NCBI GenBank assembly: GCA_025964325.1
Contig: JAOPZA010000240.1
Coordinates: forward strand, 1-42,608
Direction of reading: 5' to 3'
Origin: Conexibacter sp.
GTDB taxonomy: Bacteria > Actinomycetota > Thermoleophilia > Solirubrobacterales > Solirubrobacteraceae
DNA: 42,608 nt
Positions 248-23,054 of this stretch are shown piece after piece. Each line of letters begins with the position of its first letter. The stretch's first letter is position 1. The translations under genes and the position numbers were made by a program. The notes beneath the pieces are model-generated. The model ran no database searches. It worked only from the letters and a program-made list of their open reading frames with translations, and was not told the origin of the DNA.

Positions 248-282
248 CGCCAGTCCCCGGCGGCCTTCCGGTCGGCGAGGCT
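237..282 (+). promoter_or_regulatory. regulon promoter P1: 18-bp dyad plus -10, upstream of the 289 LLM gene
   Basis: The dyad ACTGGCGCTAGCGCCAGT (237-254) is a perfect palindrome, extending to 20 bp with the flanking G and C. After 22 bases comes GAGGCT (277-282, pattern nAnnnT), then six bases and ATG at 289. The start codon is 35 nt from the dyad and has no Shine-Dalgarno sequence, so a leaderless mRNA is predicted. This is the best-conserved member of an 11-site family in the window. Confidence 0.75.
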
Positions 283-2520: not shown

Positions 2521-2566
2521 ACGCTAGGCGGGCGGCGGCGAGGCGGCAACTGTCGCCTCCGCCAGT
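2521..2566 (-). promoter_or_regulatory. regulon promoter P2, embedded in the 3' end of the histidine kinase gene
   Basis: The dyad ACTGTCGCCTCCGCCAGT lies at 2549-2566. Read on the minus strand, 22 bases follow, then TAGCGT (2526-2521), then eight bases and the ATG at 2512. The dyad encodes part of the last 14 residues of the kinase, and the -10 overlaps the kinase stop codon. The dyad's last T begins TTGCCG, a fair -35 hexamer. No Shine-Dalgarno precedes the ATG, so a leaderless transcript is predicted. Confidence 0.65.
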
Positions 2567-5451: not shown

Positions 5452-7638
5452 CTACGAGGCGACCGCCTCGCGCAGCGCCGACGCGGCCGGCAGCGTCTCG
5501 AGGCCCTCGGTCGCGACGTCGACGCCGAGGCTCGCGGCGCAGCCCGGGCAGAAGTACTCGCGCACCATCACGCGCGGGGCCTCCTTGCGGTCGCGCACGA
5601 TCATCTCGAGCTCGTCGTAGCGCTCGGCGATCGGGCGCTCGGAGCCGACCGCGCCGTCGCGCCAGTTGCCGCCGACGTCGGCCAGCCGCTCCTCGCAGGA
5701 GGCGCACGACCAGGCCTCGTCGTCGCGCGCCAGCGAGACCCCGATGCTCGGCGGAGCGGCCTGCTGCTTCGCCGGCTCGCCGCCGATCCGCTCGCGGCGG
5801 ATCTCGGCCCGCCGCCCCGCGGTCGCGTCCGCGTCGACCGCGTTCTCGCCGTCCAGCACGACGCCGTAGATCGCGCGGGCGTGGCCGGCCGTCACGTAGC
5901 CGGCGACGACGTCGGCGGCGACCCTCGCCGGCTCGCGCAGGAGCGGGTCGCCGAGGCCGGCGCCGCCGCCGGCGGTCGCGACGAAGACGTCGCCGCGCTC
6001 GAGCGCGATGTGGGTCAGCTTCGAGCGGACGACCTCGGTGCGGCCGTCGAGCCGCTCGCGCGTCGGCATCGTGCCCTCGGCGATCAGCTTCGACACGTTC
6101 GAGTCGCGGACCGGGAAGAAGGTGCCGGACGAGCCCGGGTAGCCGCCGCCGACGCCGTGCGGCGGGACCTGCGCGCAGGCGTTGAAGCACGGGCCCGCCA
6201 TCACGTCGCCGTAGTGGATCGCATAGGCCTGGTCGAGCGACTGGCCGCCGCGCATCTGGCCCGGGCCGCCCGAGTTGGCGACCAGCCGGCGCCACAGGAA
6301 CAGCACCGGGTCGGCGCCCTCGTGGTTCTCGATGTCGGGGATGCCGCCGCCCGTCGTGCAGGTCAGGCCGTAGGCGTCCTGGCCGTCGTTGATCGTCTGG
6401 CCGCCGCCGCCCGAGCCGATCGCGTTGTCGGGGTAGAAGATCACCGAGACGCCGCCGTGCTGGTTGGTGCCGAACAGCGCGTTGCCGGGGAAGCCGTCCT
6501 GATGCTGGCCGGCGATCCGGGCGCGGATCACGGGGTCCTCGCTCAGCGCCATCGCCTGGCAAAGGACGTCCTTGGAGAGCTTGCAGGCGCGCATCCCCAC
6601 CTCCGAGTGCGCATTGGAGACCGGCGCCGGCGGGACCGAGTTGACGATCGTCCCCTCCTCGCCGAGGTCGACCCTGATCGGCCGCCAGAGGCCGCCGTTG
6701 ACCGGCAGGTCGCCGTAGACGAGGACGGTCATCAGGCCGGTCATCGCCTGGCCGAACATCGGGCCGCGGGTCGAGTTGACGAACGCGTCGATCTGCGGGA
6801 CGCCCGAGTAGCTGTAGCGCAGGTCGGTGCCGTCGACCTCCAGCCGGCAGCGCAGCTCGAGCAGCCGGTCCGGGCCCTCGTGGCCGTCGAACTCGTTCCA
6901 GTCGACGGCCTCGTAGACGCCGTCCGGGATTCTCGCGATCCGCTCGCGCAGCACCTGCTCGCTCAGGTCCTTGTTGATCTCGCAGTACTTGCGGTGGTTC
7001 TCGAGCCCGAACTCGTCGATGATCTGGTTGAGCTTGCCGGTCGCGGTGTTGTTGGCGGCCACCATCGAGCGGATGTCGTTCAGGACCGCGCCGGGCGCCC
7101 GCACGTTGGCGGCGATGTACGCCTCCCACTGCGGGTCGATCGCGCCCTCGCGGATGATCTGGATCGGCGGGAAGCGCATCCCCTCCTGCCAGACGTCATG
7201 GGCGCCGGGCGCGTAGCCGGAGATGCCGACGCCGCCGACGTCGAGGACGTGCATGTTGGCGAAGCTCCAGCCGAGGTGCTCGCCGTCGTAGAACGTCGGC
7301 ATGATGATCGAGACGTCGCCCTGGTGCATCGCCCCGCCGGTGTGGGGGTCGTTGACGATCCAGCCGTCGCCCGGCTGCAGGTCGTAGTTCGACTCGGCGA
7401 CCAGGTCGATGATCGCTCTCGTCCCGATCAGCGACGAGCCGACGTGGAAGAGCACGTAGGACGAGAACCCGAGGTGCTCGCAGTTCGTGTCCATCAGGCA
7501 GGTCGAGAAGTCCTTCGACTCCGTCACGATCGGCGATCCGGAGGTCCGCACGAGCGTGATCGCCATCTCGTCGGTCAGGTTCTGCAGCGCCTTGCGATGG
7601 ACCTCGGCCGCAATGACGTCGTAGTCGGCAGTGCTCAT
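5452..7638 (-). CDS. hydantoinase B / acetone-carboxylase alpha-like subunit with fused gamma-like zinc domain
   Basis: 728 residues. The first ~590 match the HyuB family (DPHTGGAMHQGDVSIIMP; YAPGAHDVWQEG; late glycine-rich SGGPGQMRGGQ). In ketone carboxylases this subunit binds the substrate and carboxyphosphate-derived CO2. A C-terminal extension of about 100 residues has two Cys pairs, CASC (645, 648) and CPGC (697, 700), resembling the separate gamma subunit of acetone carboxylase (AcxC-like zinc domain). The fusion points to ketone carboxylation rather than hydantoin hydrolysis, though 5-oxoprolinase/hydantoinase activity cannot be excluded. ATG 7638 has AGGAGCG upstream and follows the hyuA-like stop by 10 bp; the two form one operon from promoter P3. 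Confidence 0.82.
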   Translation of the reverse strand: MSTADYDVIAAEVHRKALQNLTDEMAITLVRTSGSPIVTESKDFSTCLMDTNCEHLGFSSYVLFHVGSSLIGTRAIIDLVAESNYDLQPGDGWIVNDPHTGGAMHQGDVSIIMPTFYDGEHLGWSFANMHVLDVGGVGISGYAPGAHDVWQEGMRFPPIQIIREGAIDPQWEAYIAANVRAPGAVLNDIRSMVAANNTATGKLNQIIDEFGLENHRKYCEINKDLSEQVLRERIARIPDGVYEAVDWNEFDGHEGPDRLLELRCRLEVDGTDLRYSYSGVPQIDAFVNSTRGPMFGQAMTGLMTVLVYGDLPVNGGLWRPIRVDLGEEGTIVNSVPPAPVSNAHSEVGMRACKLSKDVLCQAMALSEDPVIRARIAGQHQDGFPGNALFGTNQHGGVSVIFYPDNAIGSGGGGQTINDGQDAYGLTCTTGGGIPDIENHEGADPVLFLWRRLVANSGGPGQMRGGQSLDQAYAIHYGDVMAGPCFNACAQVPPHGVGGGYPGSSGTFFPVRDSNVSKLIAEGTMPTRERLDGRTEVVRSKLTHIALERGDVFVATAGGGAGLGDPLLREPARVAADVVAGYVTAGHARAIYGVVLDGENAVDADATAGRRAEIRRERIGGEPAKQQAAPPSIGVSLARDDEAWSCASCEERLADVGGNWRDGAVGSERPIAERYDELEMIVRDRKEAPRVMVREYFCPGCAASLGVDVATEGLETLPAASALREAVAS

Positions 7639-7648
7639 CGGTCGCTCC

Positions 7649-9748
7649 TCAACGGGTCAGGACGTAGTTCATGTACTCGTCGCGCTCCGCCGTGGTTCCC
7701 GGAGGCACGTAGATCGTGGTGTCGACGGCGTCGATGATCGCCGGGCCCTCGACGCGCGTGCCGGCGGTGAAGCGCGCGTCGTCGATCACCGGCACCGACT
7801 CGCGGCGCCGCTCGCCCGGCAGGAAGACCTCGCGCATCTCGCGCGTGAGCTCGCCCGTCGCGCCGTTGCGCGGCGGGCCGGCGATGCTCGGCCGCTCCTG
7901 CCGCCCGGTCACCGTGACGCTGTAGTTGATGAGCGACGCCGGCACGCCCTTCCAGGCGGTTCCCTCGCCGTAGGTCTGCTCGTAGTGGGAGAGGAACTCG
8001 TCGAAGATCTTCGGCGCATCGTCCTCGGTCAGCGTCCGCGCCGGCATCGGCAGCGTCAGCTCGTAGGCCTGCCCCTGGAAGCGGATGTCGGCGCTGCGGG
8101 CGACGTCGATCTGCTCGCGCGGGAAGCCCTCGGACTCCATCTGCGCGATCGCCTCGGCGACCATTCTCTCGGCGATCGCGTTGACGCGCTCGACGCCGTC
8201 GGGCTTGCTGAGGTCCCAGCCGACGCCCTGGTCCGAGCGCATCACGTAGTCGGATGAGAGCAGTCCGAGCGCGCAGAAGACCGAGCTGTTCTGCGGGATC
8301 ACGATCGTCGAGATGTTGAGGCGGTCGGCGATCTGCGAGGCGAACAGCGGCAGCGTGCCGCCGTAGGCGAGGAAGAGGAACTCGCGCGGATCGTGGCCCT
8401 TGCCGACGCTGACCTCGCGCACCGCGTTCGCCATGTTGACGACGACGAGGTCGTGGACGGCGGCCGCCGACTCCTCCGTGCTCCAGCCGTAGCGCGCGCC
8501 GAAGACGCGGTCGAGCGCCTCGCGGGAGAGCTCGGGTTGGAGTTGGACGCGACCGCCGAGGTAGTTGTCGGGGTCGATGAAGCCGAGCGTCACCATCGCG
8601 TCGGTGACGGTCGGCTGCTCGCCGCCGCGTCCGAGCGCGGCGGGACCCGGGGTCGAGCCCGCGCTGTGGGGGCCGACCTGCGGCACGCCGCGCTCGCTGA
8701 CCCAGCCGATCGAGCCGCCGCCGGCGCCGACCGAGACGACGTCGACGAGGTTGACGCCCGTCATGAAGGGACCGAGCTCGAGGTTCTTCTCGATGTGGAT
8801 CTCGTTGTCGACGATGATCCCGGTGTCGAAGCTCGTGCCGCCCATGTCGCCGAGCAGCACGCGTCTCTTGCCCATCCGTCTGGCCAGCTCGTTCGCGCCG
8901 ATCGCGCCGCCGGCCGGGCCGGAGCCGAGCAGGCCGAGCGGGTATTGGCGCGCCTTCTCGAGGCTGATGCCGCCGCCGAGTCCCTGGAAGAAGGCGAGCC
9001 CGCCGCCGAGTCCCGACGATCGCAGCTTCTCGTCGAGCGAGGTGAGGTAGACCTCGGCGCGGTCCTGCACGAACGAGTTGAGGATCGCCGTCGTCCAGCG
9101 ACGGGTCTCGCCTTCGACCGGGAAGACGCGGTGCGAGGGGGTCACGAAGAGGTCGGGATAGAGCTCCTTGATCGCCGCCTCGGCGGCGAGCTCGTGCTCG
9201 CCGTTGGCGTGACTCCAGAGGAAGCAGACGGCGACCGCGTCGACGCCGATCTCCTCGACCAGGTGGCGCACGGCGGTCTTGACCTGCTCGGTGTCGAGCG
9301 GGACCAGCACGCTGCCCGACCAGTCGACGCGCTCGTCGATGTCGATGATCGCGCGACGGTCCACGAGGTCGGGCACGTTCAGCTGCAGGTGATCGTCGAG
9401 CTCGGTCGTGCGCGGGCCGCCGGCGAGCCGGAAGGCGTCGCCGAAGCCGCTCGTGACGAGCACGCCGACGCGTGAGCCGCGCAGCTGGGTGATCGCGTTC
9501 GTGACGACCGTCGTGCCGTTGATGAAGAGCTGCGTCTTCTCGAGCAGCTCCTCCATCCCGATCTCGTAGCTCCCGGCGGCGACCGACACCGCCTCGAGCA
9601 CGCCGCGGCTGAAGTCGTCGTAGGTGGTCAGGGCCTTGCCCCGCTCCACCCGTCCGTTGTAGATCACGGACACGTCCGTGTGCGTTCCGCCGACGTCGAC
9701 GCCGATGAAGGCGTCGCGGCCGCTGGGCTCTGCCTGAGTCTGGCTCAT
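7649..9748 (-). CDS. hydantoinase A / acetone-carboxylase beta-like ATP-binding subunit
   Basis: 699 residues of the HyuA/oxoprolinase A family. It has the actin-like nucleotide-binding signature GVDVGGTHTDVSVIYNG near residue 15-30 and the second phosphate motif LLGDMGGTSFDTGII near 295. In acetone and acetophenone carboxylases this subunit uses ATP to activate bicarbonate and substrate. Partner: the HyuB-like protein encoded 10 bp downstream. ATG 9748 is preceded by AGGAGA, and a predicted leader of about 25 nt separates it from promoter P3. The neighbouring acyl-CoA ligase upstream could activate the beta-keto acid product (inference). Confidence 0.85.
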   Translation of the reverse strand: MSQTQAEPSGRDAFIGVDVGGTHTDVSVIYNGRVERGKALTTYDDFSRGVLEAVSVAAGSYEIGMEELLEKTQLFINGTTVVTNAITQLRGSRVGVLVTSGFGDAFRLAGGPRTTELDDHLQLNVPDLVDRRAIIDIDERVDWSGSVLVPLDTEQVKTAVRHLVEEIGVDAVAVCFLWSHANGEHELAAEAAIKELYPDLFVTPSHRVFPVEGETRRWTTAILNSFVQDRAEVYLTSLDEKLRSSGLGGGLAFFQGLGGGISLEKARQYPLGLLGSGPAGGAIGANELARRMGKRRVLLGDMGGTSFDTGIIVDNEIHIEKNLELGPFMTGVNLVDVVSVGAGGGSIGWVSERGVPQVGPHSAGSTPGPAALGRGGEQPTVTDAMVTLGFIDPDNYLGGRVQLQPELSREALDRVFGARYGWSTEESAAAVHDLVVVNMANAVREVSVGKGHDPREFLFLAYGGTLPLFASQIADRLNISTIVIPQNSSVFCALGLLSSDYVMRSDQGVGWDLSKPDGVERVNAIAERMVAEAIAQMESEGFPREQIDVARSADIRFQGQAYELTLPMPARTLTEDDAPKIFDEFLSHYEQTYGEGTAWKGVPASLINYSVTVTGRQERPSIAGPPRNGATGELTREMREVFLPGERRRESVPVIDDARFTAGTRVEGPAIIDAVDTTIYVPPGTTAERDEYMNYVLTR

Positions 9749-9852: not shown

Positions 9853-11460
9853 TTACGGCAGGACCGACTCGCCTGCCTCCGAGAAACGCTCCCGGAGCAG
9901 GAACTTCTTCGGCTTGCCGCCGACGGTCCGGGGCAGCTCTTCGACGACGCGGACCGAGGTCGGCTTCTTGTAGCCGGCCAGCCGCTCCGTGCAGAAGGCG
10001 ATCAGCTCCTGCTCGTCGATCACGGCGCCCGCCTCGGCCTCGACGACCGCCAAGACGGTCTCGCCCCACTTCTCGTGCGGCACCCCGATCGCCGCCACGT
10101 CGGCGACGTCCGGATGCTCTCGCAGCACGTCCTCGATCTCGGCGGGGAAGATGTTCATCCCGCCGCTGATGATCATGTCGCCCTTGCGACCGGAGATGAA
10201 GAGGAAGCCGTCCTCGTCGAGGTGGCCCATGTCGCCCGTGTGGAGCCAGCCGTCGACGATCTGGCGCGCCGTCAGCTCGGCGTCGTCCCAGTAGCCGGCG
10301 GTGACCGACGGGGCGCGCACGAGGATCTCGCCGTCGACCCCCTCGGGCACCGCGCCGCCGTCGGGTCCGGCGAGCCGCAGCTCGACGTGGAGCGACGGCT
10401 TGCCGGCCGATCCCGGCTTGCGGCGCGCGTCCTGCGGGCGCACGAAGGTGACCGAGCCGCCGCCCTCCGTGAGCCCGTAGACCTGGATGAAGTCGGTCTG
10501 CGGGAAGGCGCGCTGCGCCCGCTCGGTCGCCGCGGTCGACAGCGGCTGGCCGCCGCACATGATCATCTCGAGGGCGCTCAGGTCGTACTCCTCCAGCGTC
10601 GGCAGCCGCAGGATCTCGTAGAGCATCGTCGGGACCCACAGCACGTGCGTGATGCGCTGCTCGGCGACGTAGCGCACGACGTCCTCGGCGTCGAAGCCGC
10701 CCGAGCGCTTGACGTGCACGGTCCCGCCCTGGTGGAGGATCGGCCAGGTGAAGTCGTGCCGGCCGCCGATGTAGTAGAGGTCGATGATCGCGTAGGTCGA
10801 GTGCTGCGGACCGAGCTGGTAGTCGCTCAGCTGCTGCAGCGAGTTCCACATCAGCGTGCCGTTCGTCCACACGACGCCCTTCGGCTTGCCCGTCGTGCCG
10901 GAGGTGAAGATGATCTCGTGCGGGTCCTCGAGCCTCCCCTCCCGCGCCGGGCGCTCCGCCGAGGAGGAGCCGCACAGCTCCTCGAAGGAGAGGTCGCCGC
11001 CACCGCCCTCGAGCGTGATCACGGTCCGCAGATCGGGGACATCGCCGGAGCGGCGCAGCTCGAGGATCGTGCCGAGGAAGCGCTCCTCGACGAAGATCGC
11101 GCGGGTCGCCGAGCGGCGCAGCAGGTTGGCCAGCTCGTTCCCGCGCAGCCGCCAGTTGAGCGGCACCATGATCGCGCGCGCCGCCGCGATGCCGACCTCC
11201 AGCTCGATGAACTCGAGGCGGTTCGCGCTCAGCACCGCGACGCGGTCCATCTCCTCGATGCCGAGTCCGACGAGCGCGTTCGCGACGCGCCGGCTCGCCT
11301 CGCGCAGCTCGCCGTAGGTGCGCGAGCGGTCCTCGAAGACGATCGCCGGCTTGTCGAGCTCGAGGCCGTCGCGTTCGATCAGGTGCGGCAGCGTCAGCGA
11401 GCTCCAGCGGGCGGCGCTCGACAGGTCGAGCTTCACCTTCGCCGGATCGAGATCGTCCAT
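9853..11460 (-). CDS. AMP-forming acyl-CoA synthetase
   Basis: 535 residues. Adenylate-forming signatures: P-loop IIFTSGTTGKPKG (about 183-195), GLTEGGGSVTF, LHTGDMGHLDEDGF, hinge and C-terminal catalytic Lys516 in PRTVGGK. It should convert a carboxylic acid, ATP and CoA to acyl-CoA in the cytoplasm; the substrate is unknown. An in-frame upstream start (11610) would add 50 low-complexity residues; ATG 11460 (MDDLDPAKVK) is preferred because GGAGG lies 7 nt before it and promoter P4 lies further upstream. The dyad of P3 lies 24 bp after its stop, so hyuAB can be transcribed separately. Confidence 0.88.
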   Translation of the reverse strand: MDDLDPAKVKLDLSSAARWSSLTLPHLIERDGLELDKPAIVFEDRSRTYGELREASRRVANALVGLGIEEMDRVAVLSANRLEFIELEVGIAAARAIMVPLNWRLRGNELANLLRRSATRAIFVEERFLGTILELRRSGDVPDLRTVITLEGGGGDLSFEELCGSSSAERPAREGRLEDPHEIIFTSGTTGKPKGVVWTNGTLMWNSLQQLSDYQLGPQHSTYAIIDLYYIGGRHDFTWPILHQGGTVHVKRSGGFDAEDVVRYVAEQRITHVLWVPTMLYEILRLPTLEEYDLSALEMIMCGGQPLSTAATERAQRAFPQTDFIQVYGLTEGGGSVTFVRPQDARRKPGSAGKPSLHVELRLAGPDGGAVPEGVDGEILVRAPSVTAGYWDDAELTARQIVDGWLHTGDMGHLDEDGFLFISGRKGDMIISGGMNIFPAEIEDVLREHPDVADVAAIGVPHEKWGETVLAVVEAEAGAVIDEQELIAFCTERLAGYKKPTSVRVVEELPRTVGGKPKKFLLRERFSEAGESVLP

Positions 11461-11495
11461 GCGACCCTCCGTCGTCCCCGTTTCAAAGCCGGCTG

Positions 11496-11541
11496 AGCAT
11501 CGCACCGGCCCGCCGCGCGAAGCACTAGCGCTAGCGCCAGT
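11496..11541 (-). promoter_or_regulatory. regulon promoter P4 of the acyl-CoA synthetase gene
   Basis: The dyad ACTAGCGCTAGCGCCAGT (11524-11541) is followed on the minus strand by 22 bases and GATGCT (11501-11496). The start codon at 11460 is 64 nt from the dyad and has a GGAGG ribosome binding site. The dyad lies 8 bp past the stop of the kinase gene. Confidence 0.7.
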
Positions 11542-11549: not shown

Positions 11550-12593
11550 TCACCAGTCCATCAGCCGCGCGAGGTCCTGCCGCAGCCCGGGCAGCGCGAA
11601 CCGTCCCCACGCCATCCGCACGTCCGTCGTCTCGCCCTTCGCGTAGACGTTCACGCCCGTCGTCATGATCGCGAACAGCATCAGCGCGCCGAGCGCCGTG
11701 TACGTCCGCACGACCTCGGGGTCGACGGGGCGGCCCGAGCGGCGCGCGTAGCGCTCGTGGAACCAGGCGCGGTCGGCGGTCGCGTTCAGCAGCGACGAGC
11801 CCGGCGTCGTGAACTTGCCGGCCTGGTAGTCGAGCGCCATGTAGCCGAGGTCGAAGCGCGGATCGCCGACGGAGGACAGCTCCCAGTCGAGGATCCCGGT
11901 GACGCGGCCGCCGTCGATCAGGCAGTTGCCGATGCGGTAGTCGCCGTGCACGAGCGCGGGCGCGACGGGGTCGGGCTCACGCTCCCGGATCCAGGCGTAG
12001 GCCTCCTCGACCACCGGATCGGCGACGAGCGCCATCTCGTGGTAGATGCCGTCCCAGCGGTCGACGGTCTCCCGGAAGGTGCGCGGCGTGACCGCGGCGG
12101 AGGCCGCGAGCGGATCGATCGCGTGGATCGCGACGAGGTTGTCGACGAGATCGCTCGCGACCCCTCTCGGCCCATCCCAGTCGCGCGCCAGCTCGTCGCG
12201 ATCCGGTCTGCGCCAGACGTTCACCGCGTGCCCGTCGAGCCGGTCCATGACGAAGAAGGGCCCCGTGAAGGGCGTGTCACCGGAGGGCTCGAAGCCGTGC
12301 ACGCCGGGCGTCGGCAGCGGCGCATCCACGAGCAGCGCGTAGGTGCGGAACTCCTCGCCGAGATCGGTGTCGAGCAGCGAGCCGGCGGGCCGGGCGCGCA
12401 GGATGTACGCCCGCTCGCCCTCGCCGTCGCCGTGGTCGACGCGCGCGGCGTAGGAGTGGCGCGACCAGCCGCCCTCCAGCTGCTCGAGGTACGTGACGCG
12501 ACTGCTGGCGTCGGCCGAGCCGGCGGCGCGCATCGTCGCGAGCAGCGCGTCCGCCTTCGCCGCGTCGATCTGCTCCTCGCTCGAACGGGCCAT
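11550..12593 (-). CDS. APH-family kinase (ACAD10/11 or LvaA-like phosphotransferase)
   Basis: 347 residues of the aminoglycoside phosphotransferase/choline kinase fold: Gly-rich N-lobe, catalytic loop LVHGDYRIGN (H216, D218, N223) and metal-binding ILDWELSSVGDPRFDLGY (D236). Near acyl-CoA genes, such kinases phosphorylate the hydroxyl of 4-hydroxyacyl-CoA (bacterial LvaA; the kinase domain of ACAD10/11), after which an ACAD-type partner removes phosphate. Here an ACAD10/11-type dehydrogenase is encoded at 16338-17603 in the same putative regulon. Antibiotic resistance is unlikely in this setting. ATG 12593 lies 36 nt from the dyad of P5. Confidence 0.82.
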   Translation of the reverse strand: MARSSEEQIDAAKADALLATMRAAGSADASSRVTYLEQLEGGWSRHSYAARVDHGDGEGERAYILRARPAGSLLDTDLGEEFRTYALLVDAPLPTPGVHGFEPSGDTPFTGPFFVMDRLDGHAVNVWRRPDRDELARDWDGPRGVASDLVDNLVAIHAIDPLAASAAVTPRTFRETVDRWDGIYHEMALVADPVVEEAYAWIREREPDPVAPALVHGDYRIGNCLIDGGRVTGILDWELSSVGDPRFDLGYMALDYQAGKFTTPGSSLLNATADRAWFHERYARRSGRPVDPEVVRTYTALGALMLFAIMTTGVNVYAKGETTDVRMAWGRFALPGLRQDLARLMDW

Positions 12594-12600
12594 GGGAGCG

Positions 12601-12646
12601 ACGGTACCGCGGTCCTCGAGGGAGGGACATTGGCGAAAGCGCTAGG
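12601..12646 (-). promoter_or_regulatory. regulon promoter P5 of the APH-kinase gene
   Basis: The dyad ATTGGCGAAAGCGCTAGG (12629-12646) is followed on the minus strand by 22 bases and TACCGT (12606-12601), then seven bases and the ATG at 12593. There is no Shine-Dalgarno sequence, so a leaderless transcript is predicted. Confidence 0.65.
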
Positions 12647-12669
12647 CGGCGATCGCTTCGCGATCACTT

Positions 12670-12697
12670 GCAGGTATCGCCCAGAGGCGATACCTGC
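12670..12697. repeat. palindromic hairpin element between divergent promoters
   Basis: GCAGGTATCGCC and GGCGATACCTGC form a perfect 12-bp stem around CAGA. It stands between the divergent promoters P5 and P6, so it terminates neither gene. Its core resembles the hairpins at 5370 and, more loosely, those at 13841 and 32977 (GCAGG outer bases, GCCC inner bases). A REP-like element, an insulator or an unknown regulator's site are all possible. Confidence 0.5.
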
Positions 12698-12749
12698 GGT
12701 GGGTGGCGCTTCCTCGGTCGCGCGCGGTGGACGGGTGCGCTCGGGTGTG

Positions 12750-12795
12750 ACTGGCGCTTCGGGGAGGCGACTCGGTGCGGGGTGTCGGCTTTCAT
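12750..12795 (+). promoter_or_regulatory. regulon promoter P6 (half-conserved dyad) of the 12804 LLM gene
   Basis: The left half ACTGGCG with spacer CTTC is intact at 12750-12760, while the right half is degenerate (GGGGAGG, 12761-12767). The spacing is kept: 22 bases, then TTTCAT (12790-12795), then eight bases and the ATG at 12804, 37 nt from the site. Weaker or altered control is expected. Confidence 0.4.
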
Positions 12796-12803
12796 GCGGT
12801 TCC

Positions 12804-13820
12804 ATGGAACCTGCCAGCCTCGGGATCTCGACCTTTGCGCCACAGCTCGACCAGACCGCCCGGATGGCCGGCGAGGCCGGCCGCGCCGGCCTCGACGTCT
12901 GGACCAGCGAGCTGTTCAACCGCACGGCCACGGTGTCGCTCGCGCTGATGGCCGCGGCGACCTCCGAGGTCCGCGTCGGCTCGGCGGTGATGTACGGCGT
13001 CGGGCGCTCGCCGCTGATGCTCGCGGCGGAGGCGCGCGACCTCGACGAGGTCGCCGGCGGCCGCTTCGTGCTCGGCCTCGGCAACGGCACGCGCCGCATG
13101 GTCTCCGACTGGCACGGGCTCGACCCGGCCTCCCCGGCGGGCCGGATGGAGGAGCTCGTCCCGCTGCTGCGGCGGCTCTTCCGCCTCCACCTCGAGCCCG
13201 TCAAGCACGAGGGGCGCTTCTATCGCGTCGCCGTGTACCCGATCCCCGACGGCACGCCGCCGCTGCGCGAGCAGATCCCGATCTTCACCGGCGGCGTCGG
13301 CGCGCGCATGATCGAGAGCGCCGGGCGCGTGGCGGACGGCTACATCGGCCATCCACTGATGTCGCTCGACTACCTCGACGCCGTCGTGCGCCCCGCGCTC
13401 GCGCGCGGCGCCGAGCACGCCGAGCGCGACGTGGCCGGCATCGAGCTCGCCTCGATGGTGCTGTGCGCGGCCGACGACGACGAGGAGCTCGCGCGCCGCG
13501 ACGCGTCCAGCCAGCTCGCCTTCTACGGGACCGTCAAGTCCTACGACGCGGTCTTCGGGCACCACGGCTTCGAGCAGGAGACGCAGGCGATCCGCGAGGC
13601 CTTCCGCGCCGCTGACCTCGACGCGATGCGCGCGGCCGTCTCCGATCGCATGATCGACACGTTCGCGATCGCCGGAACGCCGGCGCAGGTCGCCGAGCGG
13701 CTCGGCGGACATCGCCGCGCGCTCGACCACGTGATCGTCTCCGCGCCGACGAACGGCGTCCCGGCCGCGCGCGTCGAGGCCAACCTCCGCCGCCTGATCG
13801 GCGCGCTCGGAGAGCGGTAG
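12804..13820 (+). CDS. LLM-class flavin/F420-dependent oxidoreductase
   Basis: 338 residues. The frame is open far upstream, but the family start MEPASLGISTFAPQ at ATG 12804 agrees with the promoter geometry and with its paralogue. Conserved blocks: VGSAVMYGVGRSPLMLAAEA, GGRFVLGLGNGTRRM, and GGVGARMIESAGRVADGY, typical of F420-dependent LLM enzymes. It is a close paralogue of the protein encoded at 14439-15494, sharing YGVGRSPL-TLAAEARDLDE and RFVLGLGNGTRRM blocks and nearly equal length. Substrate unknown. The gene ends at a strong hairpin and converges with the 146-residue unknown. Confidence 0.85.
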   Translation: MEPASLGISTFAPQLDQTARMAGEAGRAGLDVWTSELFNRTATVSLALMAAATSEVRVGSAVMYGVGRSPLMLAAEARDLDEVAGGRFVLGLGNGTRRMVSDWHGLDPASPAGRMEELVPLLRRLFRLHLEPVKHEGRFYRVAVYPIPDGTPPLREQIPIFTGGVGARMIESAGRVADGYIGHPLMSLDYLDAVVRPALARGAEHAERDVAGIELASMVLCAADDDEELARRDASSQLAFYGTVKSYDAVFGHHGFEQETQAIREAFRAADLDAMRAAVSDRMIDTFAIAGTPAQVAERLGGHRRALDHVIVSAPTNGVPAARVEANLRRLIGALGER

Positions 13821-13840
13821 ATCTCCAGATCGCTCCCGAG

Positions 13841-13883
13841 GAGCGCAGGTCTGCTCCCCGCTAAGGGGAGTAGACCTGCGCTC
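13841..13883. terminator. bidirectional terminator between convergent genes
   Basis: The arms GAGCGCAGGTCTGCTCCCC and its complement (one G-U pair) form a 19-bp stem with loop GCTAA. It lies between the + strand LLM gene (stop 13820) and the minus-strand gene ending at 13948, so it can serve both. No other feature is seen in 13821-13947. Confidence 0.65.
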
Positions 13884-13947
13884 ATCGGCAACGCGCCAGG
13901 CTCGCAAGCCCTCGCAGCCGCCGTCCAGCGGCGGTTCGGAGAGCGAC

Positions 13948-14388
13948 CTACGACGGAGCCGAGCGAGAGCGCACAGCGGCCGACCGCATCGAAGGCGTCC
14001 GCGCCAGCGCCGCTACCTCGCGGTCGATCAGCTCGCGCAGCACGCGGTGGACGCCGGCGCGGCGCGGATCCTCGCGCGGCAGCGCGGCGAGGAGGTCCAC
14101 CAGCGCGTCGCCGACCTCGACGCCGGTGCGCGCCGCCTCGACCCGCGCGCGTGCGTCGAGGACCAGCTCGCGGCGGTCGTCGTCGAGCACGGCGTCGAGC
14201 TCGGCGCGCAGCCAGGCCAGCAGCTCGGCCGCGGCCGCGTGCTCGGCGGCGAGCAGACGCGTCACGCTGTAGGCGGAGAGGATCTGGCTGCGCTGGTAGT
14301 CCTCGAGCGCTCCGTCCGCGGCCGCCGCCATCCGGAGCACGCGGCCGACGCCGACCAGCAGCTCCTCGGATGTGAGCGCGTTGAACAC
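13948..14388 (-). CDS. 146-residue helical protein of unknown function, possible kinase accessory subunit
   Basis: Not recognised with certainty. The sequence (EELLVGVGRVLRM; RSQILSAYSVTRLLAAE; LLAWLRAELDAVL; ALVDLLAALP) predicts an all-helical, acidic, soluble protein with an Arg/Ser-rich tail and no signal peptide. Its pattern of an ELL..V helix followed by an R-x-Q-x-LSAYSVTR helix loosely recalls the small partner proteins encoded beside APH-type kinases (LvaB in levulinate catabolism). Since the kinase is encoded 1.8 kb away under the same dyad-type promoter, an accessory role is a reasonable guess only. GTG 14388 lies 38 nt from the dyad of P7, matching the leaderless pattern. Confidence 0.6.
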   Translation of the reverse strand: MFNALTSEELLVGVGRVLRMAAAADGALEDYQRSQILSAYSVTRLLAAEHAAAAELLAWLRAELDAVLDDDRRELVLDARARVEAARTGVEVGDALVDLLAALPREDPRRAGVHRVLRELIDREVAALARTPSMRSAAVRSRSAPS

Positions 14389-14397
14389 GGTCGCCGA

Positions 14398-14443
14398 ATC
14401 AAAGCGTCCGGCGGCGCGGAGGGCAACTGTCGCATGCGCTAAG
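14398..14443 (-). promoter_or_regulatory. regulon promoter P7 of the 146-residue protein gene
   Basis: The dyad ACTGTCGCATGCGCTAAG (14426-14443) is followed on the minus strand by 22 bases and TTTGAT (14403-14398). The GTG at 14388 is 38 nt from the dyad without a Shine-Dalgarno. The dyad overlaps the stop codon of the upstream LLM gene (14439-14441). Confidence 0.6.
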
Positions 14444-15494
14444 CACCAGCGCTACGCGGTCCAGGCGCCGGGGCGCCCCACCCGGCGACCGCCTCGATCA
14501 GCCCGAGCGAGCTCTCGCTGATCCGCTCCTGCGAGAGCCGGAAGCTCGGCGTGTAGAGGATCGCGTGGTCGAGCACGCCCTCGTAGCGGCGCAGCGCGGC
14601 GCGCACGTCGGCAGCCGTGCCGGCGACCGCGAGCGCGTCGACCATCCGCTCGGACACCGCTGCGACCATCGCGTCGAGGTCGCGCCGTCCGAACGCCTCG
14701 CGGATCGCTCGCCCCTCGGCGGCGAAGCCGATCCGCTCGAGCAGCGGCGCGTACGTCTTGGCGGAGGCGTAGAAGGCGATCTGCGCCGCGACCTCCCTCC
14801 GCGCCCGCTCCGGATCCTCGTGGACGGCGGCGAAGACGAGGCTCGCGAGCCGCACCTCCGCCGGGTCGCGCTCCGCCTTCTCCGCACCGCGAGCGATCGC
14901 CGGCTTCACAACCTCCTGGATGTACGGGATCGTGAACAGCGTGTGGCCGAGCAGCCCGTCGGCGACGCGCCCGGCCGTCTCGATCATGCGCGGGTTGACG
15001 CCGGCGGTGTAGACCGGGATCCGCTCGCGCGGCGGCTCGACGAGGTCGCCGGTCGGCGTGATGTGGAGGTGGTAGAAGCGGCCGTCGTGGCGCACCGGCT
15101 CGAGGTGCAGCCGCCACAGCTTGCGCACGAGGACGACCAGCTCCTCCATCCGCACGGCCGGCGCCGCCGGGTCCTGACCGTGCCAGTCCTCGATCATCCG
15201 CCGCGTGCCGTTGCCGAGGCCGAGCACGAAGCGCCCGTCGGAGATCTCGTCGAGGTCGCGCGCCTCCGCGGCCAGCGTCAGCGGGCTGCGACCGACGCCG
15301 TAGGCGATCGCGGTCCCGACCGTGCAGCGCAACGTCCGGTGGGCCATCTCCGCCAGCGCGATCGTGGCGGAGCGGTTGTAGAGCTCGGGCGTCCAGGCGG
15401 CCTCGAGGCCGGCCGCGTCGGCGGCCGCCGCGATCTCCCCCATCGCGCGGACGGACGTGCCCTGCGGCTCGATCCCGACCGTCAGCGGCGCCAT
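14439..15494 (-). CDS. LLM-class flavin/F420-dependent oxidoreductase (paralogue of the 12804 gene)
   Basis: 351 residues counted from ATG 15494 (MAPLTVGIEPQG), which follows the hydratase stop by a few bases; a GTG at 15506 inside the hydratase gene is the alternative. Blocks IAYGVGRSPLTLAAEARDLD, GRFVLGLGNGTRRMIEDW and AGVNPRMIETAGRVADGL match the LLM family and its neighbour paralogue. It is the third gene of the ACAD-hydratase-LLM operon read from P8. Role: a hydride transfer in the same pathway; substrate unknown. Confidence 0.83.
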   Translation of the reverse strand: MAPLTVGIEPQGTSVRAMGEIAAAADAAGLEAAWTPELYNRSATIALAEMAHRTLRCTVGTAIAYGVGRSPLTLAAEARDLDEISDGRFVLGLGNGTRRMIEDWHGQDPAAPAVRMEELVVLVRKLWRLHLEPVRHDGRFYHLHITPTGDLVEPPRERIPVYTAGVNPRMIETAGRVADGLLGHTLFTIPYIQEVVKPAIARGAEKAERDPAEVRLASLVFAAVHEDPERARREVAAQIAFYASAKTYAPLLERIGFAAEGRAIREAFGRRDLDAMVAAVSERMVDALAVAGTAADVRAALRRYEGVLDHAILYTPSFRLSQERISESSLGLIEAVAGWGAPAPGPRSAGA

Positions 15495-15498
15495 CGGC

Positions 15499-16338
15499 TC
15501 AGGCACCCGTGAAGCGTGCCGCGCGCCTCTCGCGGAAGGCGCTGAGCGACTCTCTGAAGTCCTCGCCGCGCGTCGCCAGCGTCTGGCCGCGGTTCTCGAC
15601 CTCGACCGCTTGGCCGAGCGAGCCGGCGTCGACGTTCGCGTTCAGCACCCGCTTCGTCAGCGTGACGCCGAAGGGCGAGTTGGCGGCGATCTGCTCGGCC
15701 GTCTCGAACGCGGCGTCGAGCAACGCCTCGGCCGGCACGACGCGGTTGACGAGGCCGATCTCGGCCGCCTCCGCGGCGTCGAGGAAGCGTCCCGTCAGCA
15801 TGATCTCGGCGGCACGGCCGAGTCCGACGACGCGCGGCAGCGACCACGAGACGCCGACGTCGCCGGCCGACAGCCCGATCCGCACGAAGGCGGCGTTGAA
15901 GCGCGCCGCGGGCGCGGCGAGGCGGATGTCGGCCGCCAGCGCGAGGCCGAGGCCGCCGCCCGCGGCAGCGCCGTTGACGGCCGCGATCACGGGCTGCGGC
16001 AGCTCGTGGAAGTTGACGAACGCGCCCGCCCAGTACTGCTGGCCGAGCATCATCTCGTGCGGCGTCATGTCCGACAGCGTGATCGCGTCGTCGAGGTCGA
16101 GGCCGGCGCAGAAGCCGCGGCCCGCCCCGGTCAGGACGACGACGCGCACGTCGCGGTCCTGCTTGAGGTCGCCGCACAGTTGGTGCAGCTCGTCGAACAT
16201 CTCGAACGTGATCGCGTTGAGCCGCTCGGGGCGATTGAGCGTCACGAGCACGACGCCGTCGCGCGGCCGCTCCACCAGCAGCGTCCGGTAGGCGCCGTCG
16301 GTCGCGGAGGCGGCGGGCGTGCCGAGGAGCGGGCCCAT
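15499..16338 (-). CDS. enoyl-CoA hydratase/isomerase family protein
   Basis: 279 residues of the crotonase fold. The oxyanion-hole blocks are GAGRGFCAGLDL (first) and AAVNGAAAGGGLGLALAADI (second). Position FNAAFVRIGLSAGDVGVSWSLPRVVG corresponds to the catalytic-glutamate loop; here Asp (AGD) stands where hydratases often have Glu, so hydration, isomerisation or C-C cleavage are all possible. ATG 16338 shares one base with the ACAD stop (TGATG), so it is coupled to that gene. Confidence 0.85.
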   Translation of the reverse strand: MGPLLGTPAASATDGAYRTLLVERPRDGVVLVTLNRPERLNAITFEMFDELHQLCGDLKQDRDVRVVVLTGAGRGFCAGLDLDDAITLSDMTPHEMMLGQQYWAGAFVNFHELPQPVIAAVNGAAAGGGLGLALAADIRLAAPAARFNAAFVRIGLSAGDVGVSWSLPRVVGLGRAAEIMLTGRFLDAAEAAEIGLVNRVVPAEALLDAAFETAEQIAANSPFGVTLTKRVLNANVDAGSLGQAVEVENRGQTLATRGEDFRESLSAFRERRAARFTGA

Positions 16339-17603
16339 CACCGCTCCCCGGCCGCGACCGGCGCGGAGGCGTCGCGCACGTAGCGGTCGGCCGGCAGCTC
16401 GGCGAACTTGCGCAGCTCGATGCGCGCGATCACCTGCTTGTGCACCTCGTCGGCGCCGTCGCCGATCCGCAGCATCCGGTTGTAGCGGTACATCGAGGCG
16501 AGCGGCGTGTCGTCGGAGACGCCCGCCCCGCCCCACACCTGGATCGCGCGGTCGACCACGTTCAGCGCCATCTCGGGGACCGCGACCTTCGTGATCGACA
16601 GCTCCTCGCGAGCGAGGCGGTTGCCGACCTGGTCGAGCTTCCAGGCCGCGTGCGCGGTCACGAGACGCGCCTGGTCGATCTCGATCCGCGAGCGTGCGAT
16701 GAAGTCCTGGACGAACTGCTTGTCGGCCAGCACGCCGCCGAACAGCTCGCGCGTGTTGGCCCGCTGGCACATCAGCTCGAGCGCGCGCTCGGCGACGCCG
16801 ATCAGCCGCATGCAGTGGTGGATCCGTCCGGGCCCGAGGCGGTCCTGCGAGATTCTGAAGCCGCTCTGGCGCTCGCCGAGCGTCGCCGCGGCGGCCGGCA
16901 CGCGGCACTCCTCGTAGGCGACCTCCCAGTGGCCGGGTCCGGCCGTGTGGCCCATGTTCGAGAGCGGGCGCACGAGGTTGAAGCCCGGCGTGTCGGTCGG
17001 GACGATGATCATCGTCGCGCGCTTGTGCTTCGGCGCCTCGGGGTCGGTGACCGCCATCACGATCGCGAAGGCCGCGCCGAGCGCGTTCGTCGTCCACCAC
17101 TTGCGGCCGTCGATCACCCAGTCGTCGCCGTCGAGGACGGCGGCGCAGGCGAGGCCGGTCGGGTCCGAGCCGGCCGTCTCCGGCTCCGTCATCGAGTAGC
17201 AGCCGCGCAGCTCGCCTTCGAGCAGCGGCTCGAGCCAGCGCTCGCGCTGGACGGCGTTCGCGTGCTCGACGAGGATCTCGGCGTTGCCGCTGTCGGGCGG
17301 CTGGCAGTTGAAGACGTAGGGGGCAACGAGCGTCGCGCGGCCCATCTCCTCGCACAGCACGCCGTACTCGGCGTTCGTCAGCCCGGGCCCGTACTGCTCG
17401 CTCGGGAGGAACAGGTTCCACAGCCCCTCGGCCTTCGCCTTCGCCCGCAGCTCCACCAGGATCGCCGGGAACGGCGTCTGCTCGTCGACCTCGCGGTCGA
17501 GCGCCTCCTCCGCCTCGCGCTCGTTCGGGTAGACGTGCTCCTGCATGAAATCGCGCACGCGCTGCAGCAGCGCCTTGCAGCGATCAGTCGGCTCGAAGTC
17601 CAC
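16338..17603 (-). CDS. ACAD10/11-type acyl-CoA dehydrogenase
   Basis: 421 residues. The sequence has the N-terminal MDFEPTDRCKALLQRVRDFM, the flavin motif YSMTEPETAGSDPTGL, and the C-terminal RIGDGADEVHKQVIARIELRK, where Glu386 of GADEVH is the expected catalytic base. The DG-DEVH form is characteristic of ACAD10/ACAD11 and related bacterial LvaC proteins, which act on 4-phosphoacyl-CoA made by an APH-type kinase. Such a kinase is encoded at 11550-12593. Start GTG 17603 has AGGAGG about 10 nt upstream and a predicted leader from promoter P8. It leads the ACAD-hydratase-LLM operon. Confidence 0.87.
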   Translation of the reverse strand: MDFEPTDRCKALLQRVRDFMQEHVYPNEREAEEALDREVDEQTPFPAILVELRAKAKAEGLWNLFLPSEQYGPGLTNAEYGVLCEEMGRATLVAPYVFNCQPPDSGNAEILVEHANAVQRERWLEPLLEGELRGCYSMTEPETAGSDPTGLACAAVLDGDDWVIDGRKWWTTNALGAAFAIVMAVTDPEAPKHKRATMIIVPTDTPGFNLVRPLSNMGHTAGPGHWEVAYEECRVPAAAATLGERQSGFRISQDRLGPGRIHHCMRLIGVAERALELMCQRANTRELFGGVLADKQFVQDFIARSRIEIDQARLVTAHAAWKLDQVGNRLAREELSITKVAVPEMALNVVDRAIQVWGGAGVSDDTPLASMYRYNRMLRIGDGADEVHKQVIARIELRKFAELPADRYVRDASAPVAAGER

Positions 17604-17645: not shown

Positions 17646-17719
17646 ACCCTATCCGCGCCGTTTCGGCCGGGCGACTGGCGGTTGCGCTAGGACCGGTTTC
17701 GCCCGCTGCCGCCTAGCGT
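17646..17719. promoter_or_regulatory. regulon promoter P8, bidirectional
   Basis: One dyad, ACTGGCGGTTGCGCTAGG (17674-17691), serves two directions. On the + strand 22 bases then TAGCGT (17714-17719), with ATG 17728 at 37 nt and no Shine-Dalgarno. On the minus strand 22 bases then TAGGGT (17651-17646), with GTG 17603 at 71 nt and an AGGAGG site. Both -10 hexamers are at exactly the same spacing. Confidence 0.7.
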
Positions 17720-17727
17720 CTCGGCAG

Positions 17728-19440
17728 ATGGACGTCACCAACCTGCACGGCCGCCGGGCGGTCGCGCGCTGGGAGCGCACCAGCGTCGGCGACCTGTTCG
17801 AGCGACTCACCTGGAGCTATCCCGAGAAGGACGCGATCGTCGCGTGGGAGGGCGCCTACGCCCACCCCCAGCACCAGCGCGTCAGCTACCGGCAGGCGGA
17901 CGAGCTGGCGAACCGGATCGCGAACGCGCTCCTCGCCCGCGGCCTGCAGCGCGGCGACCGCGTCCTGCTGTTCTGCGAGAACTCGGTCGAGGCGTATCTG
18001 ACGAAGTTCGGGATCGCGAAGGCGGGGCTGACGTGCGTGCCCGTCAACCCGATGCTCGCGCCCGACGTCGTCGGCCACCTGATCGAGCGCGTTGAGCCGC
18101 GCCTGACGATCGTCGACGCGGTCCTGTGGCCGCAGGCGCAGGAGGCGTTCGCACGGCAGCGCCTGACGCCCGACGTGACGATCGAGATCGGCGGCGGCGT
18201 GGTCGCGGGCAGCGTCTCCTTCCTCGACTTCCTCGAGGGCGCCGCGAGCACCGAGCCGGACGTCGAGATCCACGCCGACGACATCTGGGAGATCATCTTC
18301 ACCTCCGGCACGACGGCGCTGCCGAAGGGCGTGATGGTGTCGCACAGCTACAGCTACCTGGCCGCCTACTCGTTCGCGCTGACGCTCACGCGCGGCATCC
18401 GGATCGAGTGCGACCTGAAGCTCGGCGCCTTCCTGCCGCTGATCTACCACATCGCGGACCAGATCTTCTCGATCCCCGCCTTCCTGTCCGGCGGCACGCT
18501 CGTGATGGGGCGCGGCTACGACCCCGAGCAGATCGCCGCGGCGATCACGCAGGAGCGCGTGACGGCGCTGTGGAGCGGCTCCCCCGCGATGCTCGCCGAC
18601 CTCGTCGGCGCGCTCGAGCGCGAGCCGGAGCGCTACGACGGCGCCTCGCTCGGCGTCGTCGTCTACGGCTGGACGGCGGCGCCGCCGCAGCTCGTCGCCG
18701 ACCTCAAGCGCCTCTGCCGCGAGGACCTCGTCGCCTGCGAGATCCTGGGACAGACGGAGGCGATCTCCTGCCACCGCTTCTGGCCGGACAAGTGGCGCGA
18801 TACGTTCGAGGCGACCTCGCCCGCGCTCAACTACGTCGGCGTGCCGAATCCGCTCGTCGCCGGCGACGTCGTCGACGCCGAGGGCAACTCGCTGCGCGGG
18901 CGCGTCGGCGTGCCGGGCGAGGTCGTCTACCGCTCGCCCGTCGTGACGGCCGGCTACTACCGCGACGAGGAGGCGACGAAGGACGCCTTCCGCGACGGCT
19001 GGTTCCACTCCGGCGACGTCTGCACCTACGACGAGGACGGCCTGCGGATCATGGTCGATCGCTCGAAGGACGTCGTGAAGTCCGGCGGCGAGAACGTCTC
19101 GAGCCTGCGCGTGGAGGCGGTCCTGCACCAGCACCCCGACGTCCAGAAGGCCGCCGTCGTCGGGCTGCCCCACAAGCGCTGGGGCGAGGCCGTCACCGCC
19201 TTCGTGATCCCCACCCCGGGCAGCGACCCGGACCCGGACGAGCTCGTCGCCTTCTCGCGCGAGACGCTCGCCGGCTTCGAGGCGCCGAAGCGGATCGTGC
19301 TCGTCGACGACCTTCCCGCGACGGTCGGGGGGAAGGTCCTGAAGTACAAGCTGCGCGTCGCGCACGCGGCGCTCTACGAGGCGTCGCCGAGCGAGCAGCC
19401 GAGCGCTTCGGAGCCTAGCTCGCCACCGTCAAGACGATGA
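17728..19440 (+). CDS. AMP-forming acyl-CoA synthetase (FadD-like)
   Basis: 570 residues from ATG 17728 (MDVTNLHGRRAVARW). The frame is open upstream, but this start agrees with the 37-nt dyad spacing. Signatures: IIFTSGTTALPKGVM (P-loop, Thr-rich), GWTAAPPQL, GQTEAISC, FHSGDVCTYDEDGL and C-terminal TVGGKVLKYKLR with the catalytic Lys. It activates an unknown carboxylic acid to its CoA ester. A Ser/Pro-rich tail (about 15 residues) follows. Its 3' end overlaps the convergent EamA gene by 26 bp. Confidence 0.88.
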   Translation: MDVTNLHGRRAVARWERTSVGDLFERLTWSYPEKDAIVAWEGAYAHPQHQRVSYRQADELANRIANALLARGLQRGDRVLLFCENSVEAYLTKFGIAKAGLTCVPVNPMLAPDVVGHLIERVEPRLTIVDAVLWPQAQEAFARQRLTPDVTIEIGGGVVAGSVSFLDFLEGAASTEPDVEIHADDIWEIIFTSGTTALPKGVMVSHSYSYLAAYSFALTLTRGIRIECDLKLGAFLPLIYHIADQIFSIPAFLSGGTLVMGRGYDPEQIAAAITQERVTALWSGSPAMLADLVGALEREPERYDGASLGVVVYGWTAAPPQLVADLKRLCREDLVACEILGQTEAISCHRFWPDKWRDTFEATSPALNYVGVPNPLVAGDVVDAEGNSLRGRVGVPGEVVYRSPVVTAGYYRDEEATKDAFRDGWFHSGDVCTYDEDGLRIMVDRSKDVVKSGGENVSSLRVEAVLHQHPDVQKAAVVGLPHKRWGEAVTAFVIPTPGSDPDPDELVAFSRETLAGFEAPKRIVLVDDLPATVGGKVLKYKLRVAHAALYEASPSEQPSASEPSSPPSRR

Positions 19441-19836: not shown

Positions 19837-19910
19837 ACTCTCTCCGACTCGGTGGTCACGGTCGACTGGCAGTAGCGCCAGTTGGAGCGCGGTGCGGCGT
19901 CGCGCAGAGT
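19837..19910. promoter_or_regulatory. regulon promoter P9, symmetric bidirectional
   Basis: The dyad ACTGGCAGTAGCGCCAGT (19865-19882) sits midway between divergent genes. On the + strand 22 bases then CAGAGT (19905-19910) and ATG 19918 at 36 nt; on the minus strand 22 bases then GAGAGT (19842-19837) and ATG 19828 at 37 nt. Both transcripts would be leaderless and one bound dimer could activate both. Confidence 0.75.
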
Positions 19911-23008: not shown

Positions 23009-23054
23009 AGTTCACCCGAGCGAGCCCCTCTCGCCCACTAGCGCTTCCGCCAAT
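23009..23054 (-). promoter_or_regulatory. regulon promoter P10 of the CoA-transferase operon
   Basis: The dyad ACTAGCGCTTCCGCCAAT (23037-23054) is followed on the minus strand by 22 bases and TGAACT (23014-23009), a weak -10, then the leader ATG at 23001 at 36 nt. The site is one of two copies of a 31-bp repeat. Confidence 0.55.

What the first reader, a model, noticed from the sequence alone, without database searches (positions are those of the whole stretch)
11550..17603. Split kinase plus ACAD10/11-type dehydrogenase: possible 4-hydroxyacyl-CoA pathway
In animals, ACAD10/11 fuse an APH kinase to an acyl-CoA dehydrogenase; in Pseudomonas LvaA and LvaC do this as separate proteins, with the small LvaB needed for the kinase. 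Here the kinase (11550), a small helical protein (13948) and the GADEVH-type dehydrogenase (16338) are separate genes under the same type of promoter. This would turn 4-hydroxyacyl-CoA into 3-hydroxyacyl-CoA through a phospho intermediate.
Basis: inference. Interest (0 to 1): 0.6.

Follow-up and report, generated by a model that had tools for sequence, protein, structure and literature searches.

The report
Hydroxyacyl-CoA kinase with new helper protein
A soil-type actinobacterium carries a gene set that probably removes a hydroxyl group from fatty-acid-like molecules by first phosphorylating it, and its kinase comes with a small unnamed helper protein that may do the job of the LvaB helper known from Pseudomonas.

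Summary
The three genes are real. The dehydrogenase (16338-17603, -) is clearly ACAD10/11/LvaC-type: about 370 bits to ACAD11 structures, at most 165 to ordinary ones, with all named active-site residues. The kinase (11550-12593, -) is APH-family with catalytic residues kept. The 146-residue protein (13948-14388, -) is all-helical by AlphaFold2, has no named family and does not match DUF6285, which I take to be LvaB's family (unverified). In 12 of 12 loci found, a kinase of one clade follows it on the same strand, 9 of 12 within about 54 nt. DUF6285 sits beside another kinase clade. Both partner-bearing clades mostly lack two arginines that modelling of ACAD11 assigns to CoA binding; partnerless kinases keep them. 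Versions of an 18-bp palindrome precede all three genes and recur in relatives. An LvaABC-like pathway is therefore well supported, but the small protein is at best an LvaB analogue: sequence homology was not shown, fold identity could not be tested, and the substrate is unknown. Seven of 12 small-protein/kinase loci show no such dehydrogenase nearby, so the pair is not tied to it.

The parts
16338..17603 (-). ACAD10/11-LvaC type acyl-CoA dehydrogenase (421 aa); R255, R260, H263, R266, D382 = R626, R631, H634, R637, D753 of mouse ACAD11
   Evidence: residue roles from passages of PMC12440821
15499..16287 (-). enoyl-CoA hydratase/isomerase family protein
   Evidence: PF00378, 199.5 bits; same place in relatives
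14439..15506 (-). luciferase-like (F420/FMN) oxidoreductase
   Evidence: PF00296, 212 bits
13948..14388 (-). small all-helical protein, unnamed family, proposed kinase partner (LvaB analogue)
   Evidence: no family; 12 members, all with a clade kinase; model
12780..13820 (+). second luciferase-like oxidoreductase, inserted between small gene and kinase on the opposite strand
   Evidence: small gene and kinase are contiguous in L016, L018, L121, L123
11550..12593 (-). APH-family kinase (347 aa), HGDYRIGN catalytic loop kept, both ACAD11 CoA-contact arginine positions are Glu
9853..11469 (-). AMP-forming acyl-CoA ligase (FadD1), directly after the kinase
7649..9748 (-). hydantoinase A / ketone-carboxylase-like subunit
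5452..7638 (-). hydantoinase B / ketone-carboxylase-like subunit with a C-terminal acetone-carboxylase-gamma domain
2524..5231 (-). GAF sensor histidine kinase and LuxR-type response regulator, candidate regulator of the operator
   Evidence: response regulator conserved in relatives; role inferred
17695..19440 (+). AMP-forming acyl-CoA ligase (FadD2), divergent from ACAD
17674..17691 (.). operator palindrome between ACAD and FadD2 (1 mismatch)
14426..14443 (.). operator-like palindrome upstream of the small gene (3 mismatches here; 1 in L123, 2 in L015)
12629..12646 (.). operator palindrome upstream of the kinase (2 mismatches)
11524..11541 (.). operator palindrome upstream of FadD1 (0 mismatches)
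13831..13893 (.). terminator-like inverted repeat between the + strand luciferase-like gene and the small gene

Best explanation
The genes form an LvaABC-like module inside a larger catabolic regulon. A ligase makes an acyl-CoA. The kinase, acting with the 146-residue helical protein as an obligate partner, phosphorylates a hydroxyl (most likely at C4) of that acyl-CoA. The ACAD10/11-type dehydrogenase then abstracts an alpha proton with D382, eliminates phosphate with its flavin and gives a 2-enoyl-CoA, which the neighbouring enoyl-CoA hydratase passes into beta-oxidation. The partner is proposed to supply the CoA/acyl contacts that the kinase itself lacks. Shown: gene content, active-site residues, genetic coupling of partner and kinase, shared operator. 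Inferred: physical complex, substrate, position of the hydroxyl, role of the partner.
For: ACAD type: 366-373 bits to ACAD11 (8v3u, 8v3v, 2wbi) and its Mycobacterium relative 4hr3, at most 165 bits to any other solved ACAD. All five residues named for ACAD11 (paper passages) are present in the window protein and in 6 of 6 cluster orthologues aligned; 3 of 3 generic ACADs in the same alignment lack the three phosphate residues and the Asp. Kinase: catalytic Asp and Asn kept. Coupling: 12 of 12 small-protein loci have a clade kinase on the same strand, 9 of 12 within about 54 nt. Kinase tree: three groups, each on one side of a starred branch, correspond to partner = new small protein, partner = DUF6285, no partner. 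Arginines: the one next to the alpha-C Glu is Arg in 9 of 9 partnerless, 0 of 16 DUF6285-linked, 0 of 12 small-linked kinases; the R176 equivalent is Arg in 9 of 9, 0 of 16 and 2 of 12. Shared operator.
Against: No biochemistry. Seven of 12 small-protein/kinase loci have no ACAD11-type gene in the 10-20 kb fetched, so the pair can serve other pathways. The genome has three other ACAD11-type/APH pairs (C193, C2, C90), so this ACAD might use another kinase. In other families of the order, orthologues of this ACAD (about 60-66% identical by tblastn) sit beside a partnerless-type kinase in 5 of 12 loci (L127-L131 of L127-L137 and L144). R176 equivalents are Arg in 2 of 12 small-linked kinases. The CoA role of the two arginines rests on molecular dynamics in the paper, and their absence is also explained by clade history.
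Confidence: 0.6

Rival explanations
1. The small protein is a strongly diverged true member of the LvaB/DUF6285 family rather than an unrelated analogue.
For: Same order and similar length of main helices in the models: H7-23, H30-67, (H74-85), H89-102, H108-129 against H10-28, H31-67, H73-81, H90-107. Both families sit beside APH kinases. In the local hhalign alignments the conserved Glu of the long second helix falls in the same place.
Against: DUF6285 has no match in the own genome. hhalign probability 1-4%; 44 of 150 shuffles in 12-column blocks and 80 of 150 in 20-column blocks score as high. Neither model has a confident solved relative, and the two models could not be superposed directly.
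Confidence: 0.35
2. The kinase and small protein do not serve the ACAD; they phosphorylate another intermediate of the regulon (for example one handled by the HyuAB/ketone-carboxylase-like enzyme), and the ACAD uses one of the other kinases of the genome.
For: HyuAB-like genes lie in 8 of the 12 small-protein loci (window, L015, L016, L017, L018, L121, L123, L126), an ACAD11-type gene in 5 (window, L015, L016, L018, L123). Other ACAD11-type/APH pairs exist in the genome.
Against: In the five loci with the ACAD the set is collinear (ACAD-ECH-LLM-...-small-kinase-FadD1-HyuAB), and the operator recurs in these clusters. The only substrates of this ACAD type named in the passages I read are 4-phosphoacyl-CoAs.
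Confidence: 0.25
3. Ordinary unrelated neighbours: a generic APH-fold kinase, a generic ACAD and a spurious small ORF.
For: APH and ACAD genes are common in this genome: 10 APH and 22 ACAD matches.
Against: ACAD11-specific residues, 12 members of the small family coupled to one kinase clade, conserved gene order and operator in relatives.
Confidence: 0.03

Closest known systems
lvaABCDE operon of Pseudomonas putida (levulinic acid catabolism)
   Same: Separate kinase, small protein and ACAD10/11-type dehydrogenase with an acyl-CoA ligase in one regulon.
   Different: Small protein not recognisable as a member of LvaB's presumed family; no LvaD-like gene was identified among the genes annotated here; very different surroundings (luciferase-like oxidoreductases, HyuAB/carboxylase-like, CoA transferase); the small gene precedes the kinase. 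LvaB facts come from passages of PMC6692424; the original paper is not held.
Animal ACAD10/ACAD11
   Same: Kinase and ACAD active sites; all five named ACAD residues kept.
   Different: Animals fuse the two domains and need no small partner; the window kinase lacks the arginine next to the alpha-C Glu and the R176 equivalent.
DUF6285 (PF19802) with phosphotransferase family protein
   Same: Small helical protein encoded next to an APH kinase (16 of 18 loci; 14 of 14 plasmid records).
   Different: Different kinase clade; no significant sequence relation.

Membership tests
ACAD10/11-LvaC dehydrogenases | Catalytic Asp in place of Glu (D753) and R626, H634, R637 phosphate pocket | tested here: met
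   residues from PMC12440821 passages
ACAD10/11-LvaC dehydrogenases | Turns 4-phosphoacyl-CoA into 2-enoyl-CoA without an electron acceptor | not testable with these tools
   needs enzyme assay
ACAD10/11-LvaA kinases | APH fold with HxDxxxxN catalytic loop and DWE | tested here: met
ACAD10/11-type kinases (partnerless clade) | Arg beside the alpha-C Glu and R176 (CoA contacts) | tested here: not met
   both positions are Glu in the window kinase
LvaB / DUF6285 | Match to the DUF6285 profile | tested here: not met
   no match in the own genome, none in Pfam scan
LvaB / DUF6285 | Same fold | tested here: inconclusive
   same helix order in models; no confident solved relative of either; direct superposition not available
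LvaB / DUF6285 | Gene coupled to an APH kinase | tested here: met
   12 of 12 loci
LvaB / DUF6285 | Binds the kinase and is needed for its activity | not testable with these tools
   pull-down and assay needed
LvaB / DUF6285 | That P. putida LvaB itself belongs to DUF6285 | not tested

The most novel reading that the evidence does not exclude
Two unrelated or very distant families of small helical proteins (DUF6285 and the family found here) have each become obligate substrate-binding subunits of a separate clade of acyl-CoA hydroxyl kinases, standing in for two CoA-binding arginines that ACAD10/11-type kinases carry in their own chain. This would explain why LvaA needs LvaB while ACAD10 and ACAD11 need no helper, and would let one predict from two residues whether a kinase needs a partner.
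Probability: 0.3. Interest if true: 0.7.

Novelty: new variant of a known kind. Interest (0 to 1): 0.5.

Why it matters
What LvaB does for LvaA is not explained in the papers I could read. A second, unnamed partner family tied to its own kinase clade, together with a two-residue signature that separates partner-bearing from partnerless kinases, gives a concrete and cheap test of what such partners do, and extends the 4-hydroxyacyl-CoA route to a regulon of unknown substrate in Solirubrobacterales.

Tried and rejected
Solved-structure search for the small protein: nothing with E <= 0.001 by Foldseek. The VIA second look gave bromodomain-like partial helical overlaps at Z <= 8.0 over about 75 residues, which the tool's own note calls a common arrangement for helical models; rejected as uninformative. 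The DUF6285 model also had no match with E <= 0.001, so its fold could not be linked to the small protein through a shared solved relative.

Profile comparison of small protein and DUF6285: first run (6 sequences) prob 3.7%, P 0.011; with 12 sequences prob 1.2%; block-shuffle controls as good. Homology by sequence is therefore not claimed.

A crude sigma-70-like scan found nothing upstream of ACAD or kinase. The bare heptamer YTAGCGC is not enriched in the window (10 found, 10.2 expected); only the longer palindrome is informative. That palindrome was derived from sites in this window, so its enrichment here is partly circular. The more independent parts are the relatives (24 sites with at most 2 mismatches in 116 kb of orthologous clusters against 2 in 115 kb of other stretches of the own genome) and the sites at 2549 and 19865, found only afterwards.

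Numbering: PMC12440821 calls the arginine next to the alpha-C Glu R86; counting along chain 8v3u in the alignment I get position 83 (84 with the +1 offset that fits the other residues), so I matched it by its description, not its number.

Rows dropped: L023 (no phmmer hit) from the residue table; its gene seen again as L004 has both arginines. L141 and L143, duplicates of L103 and L098, were left out of the tree and of my count of 16. L099 and L102 gave no kinase ORF. L075 and L084, unreadable, were left out of the sample. L105-L107 were not examined.
Full report
WHAT IS THERE. On the minus strand the order is ACAD (16338-17603), enoyl-CoA hydratase (15499-16287), luciferase-like oxidoreductase (14439-15506), small protein (13948-14388), then an opposite-strand luciferase-like gene (12780-13820), kinase (11550-12593), acyl-CoA ligase (9853-11469), HyuA-like (7649-9748), HyuB-like with an acetone-carboxylase-gamma domain (5452-7638), response regulator (4563-5231) and GAF sensor kinase (2524-4566). 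The Pfam scan gives APH, three ACAD domains and nothing over a cut-off for the small protein; NCBIfam gives nothing over a cut-off for it.

THE DEHYDROGENASE is ACAD10/11-type. Its four best solved relatives are ACAD11 (8v3u, 8v3v, 2wbi) and a putative acyl-CoA dehydrogenase (4hr3, recalled to be mycobacterial), all at 366-373 bits; the next best, short-chain ACADs, reach 165 bits. PMC12440821 (passages read) names R626, H634 and R637 as binding the 4-phosphate, R631 as common to ACADs and D753 as the base. By the printed alignment and a larger one all five are present: R255, H263, R266, R260, D382. They are also present in 6 of 6 aligned cluster orthologues (L015, L016, L018, L123, L138, L139); three generic ACADs in the same alignment lack the phosphate residues and the Asp.

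THE KINASE matches Pfam APH at 100 bits and, among solved proteins, 9o56, 3dxp and ACAD11. The catalytic loop HGDYRIGN and DWE are kept. A kinase tree of 37 rows puts window-type kinases (12), DUF6285-linked kinases (16) and partnerless kinases (9) each on one side of a starred branch. The root is not inferred.

THE SMALL PROTEIN. Matches were found in 5 of 101 genomes (own and relatives), 6 of 399 of the class and 2 of 396 of the phylum: the window's own and one weak match with two stop codons inside, not used further. Together these gave 12 members in 8 genomes: G000 (window), G001, G003, G005, G053 (2), G380, G463 (3) and G489 (2). Two genomes can be named from contig lengths: G005 fits Conexibacter sp. 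CPCC 205762 and G489 a Solirubrobacterales MAG. In all 12 loci a clade kinase lies downstream on the same strand. The gap is about 3-54 nt in 9 of 12; in the other three it is about 1.1 kb (L125), 1.35 kb (window) and 3.4 kb (L015), with inserted genes seen in the window and L015. Boundaries come from tblastn and profile matches. A further window-type kinase (G001 contig 603) starts at the contig edge, so its upstream side cannot be seen. AlphaFold2 on 12 sequences: pLDDT 89.8, pTM 0.73, helices only.

IS IT LvaB? LvaB is described as a 12-kDa hypothetical protein pulled down with LvaA and needed for growth on levulinic acid, while P. citronellolis has no lvaB in the region analysed (passages of PMC6692424). 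DUF6285 has the size and position expected of LvaB; that LvaB belongs to it is recalled, not tested. DUF6285 lies beside an APH kinase in 16 of 18 loci whose ORFs I scanned and in 14 of 14 Thermus plasmid records. The small protein does not match DUF6285. Profile comparison is not better than block-shuffled controls. The two models share the order of main helices, including a long second helix of 38 and 37 residues, but could not be superposed. I therefore call it an LvaB analogue with possible deep homology.

THE ARGININE PATTERN. In ACAD11, simulation places CoA against an Arg next to the alpha-C Glu and R176. At the first position partnerless kinases have Arg in 9 of 9, DUF6285-linked in 0 of 16, small-protein-linked in 0 of 12. 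At the second: 9 of 9, 0 of 16, 2 of 12 (L015, L018). In a sample not chosen by partner, the 30 loci returned for the kinase, four are window-type. Of the other 26, two were unreadable. Of the remaining 24, two have DUF6285 within the 1.5-kb flank and lack both arginines; 22 have no partner there and keep the second in 22 of 22 and the first in 20 of 22. Some of these loci are the same genes as in the partnerless set. The groups are clades, so this is at most a few independent events.

REGULATION. Upstream of ACAD, kinase, small gene, FadD1, the MaoC-side gene pair at 19.9 kb and the CoA-transferase/FadD3 pair lie versions of an 18-bp palindrome ACTRGCG-N4-CGCYAGT, with further sites at 237 and 2549. 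At up to 3 mismatches the window has 17 sites against 10.7 expected by shuffling, so single weak sites prove little. At up to 1 mismatch, 6 of 9 sites in the genome are in this window, about 1% of the genome; the other three are on contigs 93 and 133. Orthologous clusters carry it near the same gene starts. The regulator is unknown; the conserved LuxR-type response regulator of the cluster is my candidate.

PATHWAY. HyuB's closest solved relatives are hydantoinases and then acetophenone and acetone carboxylases; the CoA transferase A subunit at 22067-22954 is closest to chains called 'probable CoA-transferase alpha subunit' (6co6), which I recall to be IpdA of steroid ring degradation. Further right lie a biotin-dependent carboxylase set, MmgE/PrpD and another ligase. 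A cyclic or branched acid or ketone is plausible as substrate; this is inference.

AGAINST. Only 5 of 12 small-protein/kinase loci hold an ACAD11-type gene; 7 do not within the stretch fetched: L017, L019, L122, L124, L125 and L126, whose kinases are 43-56% identical to the window's, and L121 (78%). The genome has other ACAD11-type/APH pairs at C193, C2 and C90. Elsewhere in the order the orthologous ACAD lies beside a partnerless-type kinase in 5 of 12 loci. The link from this kinase to this ACAD is thus conserved in the cluster but not obligatory.

LITERATURE. Full-text searches for DUF6285 (no paper), LvaA with LvaB (3), PP_2792 (2, unrelated) and levulinic acid terms with LvaB (5), and a mixed search (64, 20 listed), gave no description of this small family or of the arginine pattern in the listings and passages I saw. 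I read passages of PMC12440821, PMC11342911 and PMC6692424, no whole text. The library lacks most subscription papers, including the original lva paper.

Noticed in passing
window 237-254, 2549-2566, 11524-11541, 17674-17691, 19865-19882, 23037-23054: 18-bp palindromic operator ACTRGCG-N4-CGCYAGT; 6 of 9 genome sites with at most 1 mismatch lie in this window, so much of the window looks like one regulon.
   Followed up: partly
window 5452-9748: HyuA/HyuB-like pair whose HyuB carries a C-terminal acetone-carboxylase-gamma domain: possibly a ketone carboxylase or ATP-dependent hydrolase of unknown substrate.
   Followed up: partly
window 21294-22954: CoA-transferase-type pair, A subunit closest to chains 6co6/6con (recalled as IpdA), suggesting a cyclic substrate.
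   Followed up: partly
L017, L019, L122, L124, L125, L126: Related clusters with small protein and kinase but no ACAD11-type gene; L017 has a frame at 11690-12133 that looks by eye like a B12-mutase small domain.
   Followed up: partly
window 12670-12697: Perfect 12-nt inverted repeat between kinase and the divergent luciferase-like gene, different from the operator.
   Followed up: no
L160 (contig 93 of the same genome) 4260-4277 and 14997-15014: Two further operator sites, beside an acyl-CoA ligase and a branched-chain-type transport permease: possible uptake part of the regulon.
   Followed up: partly
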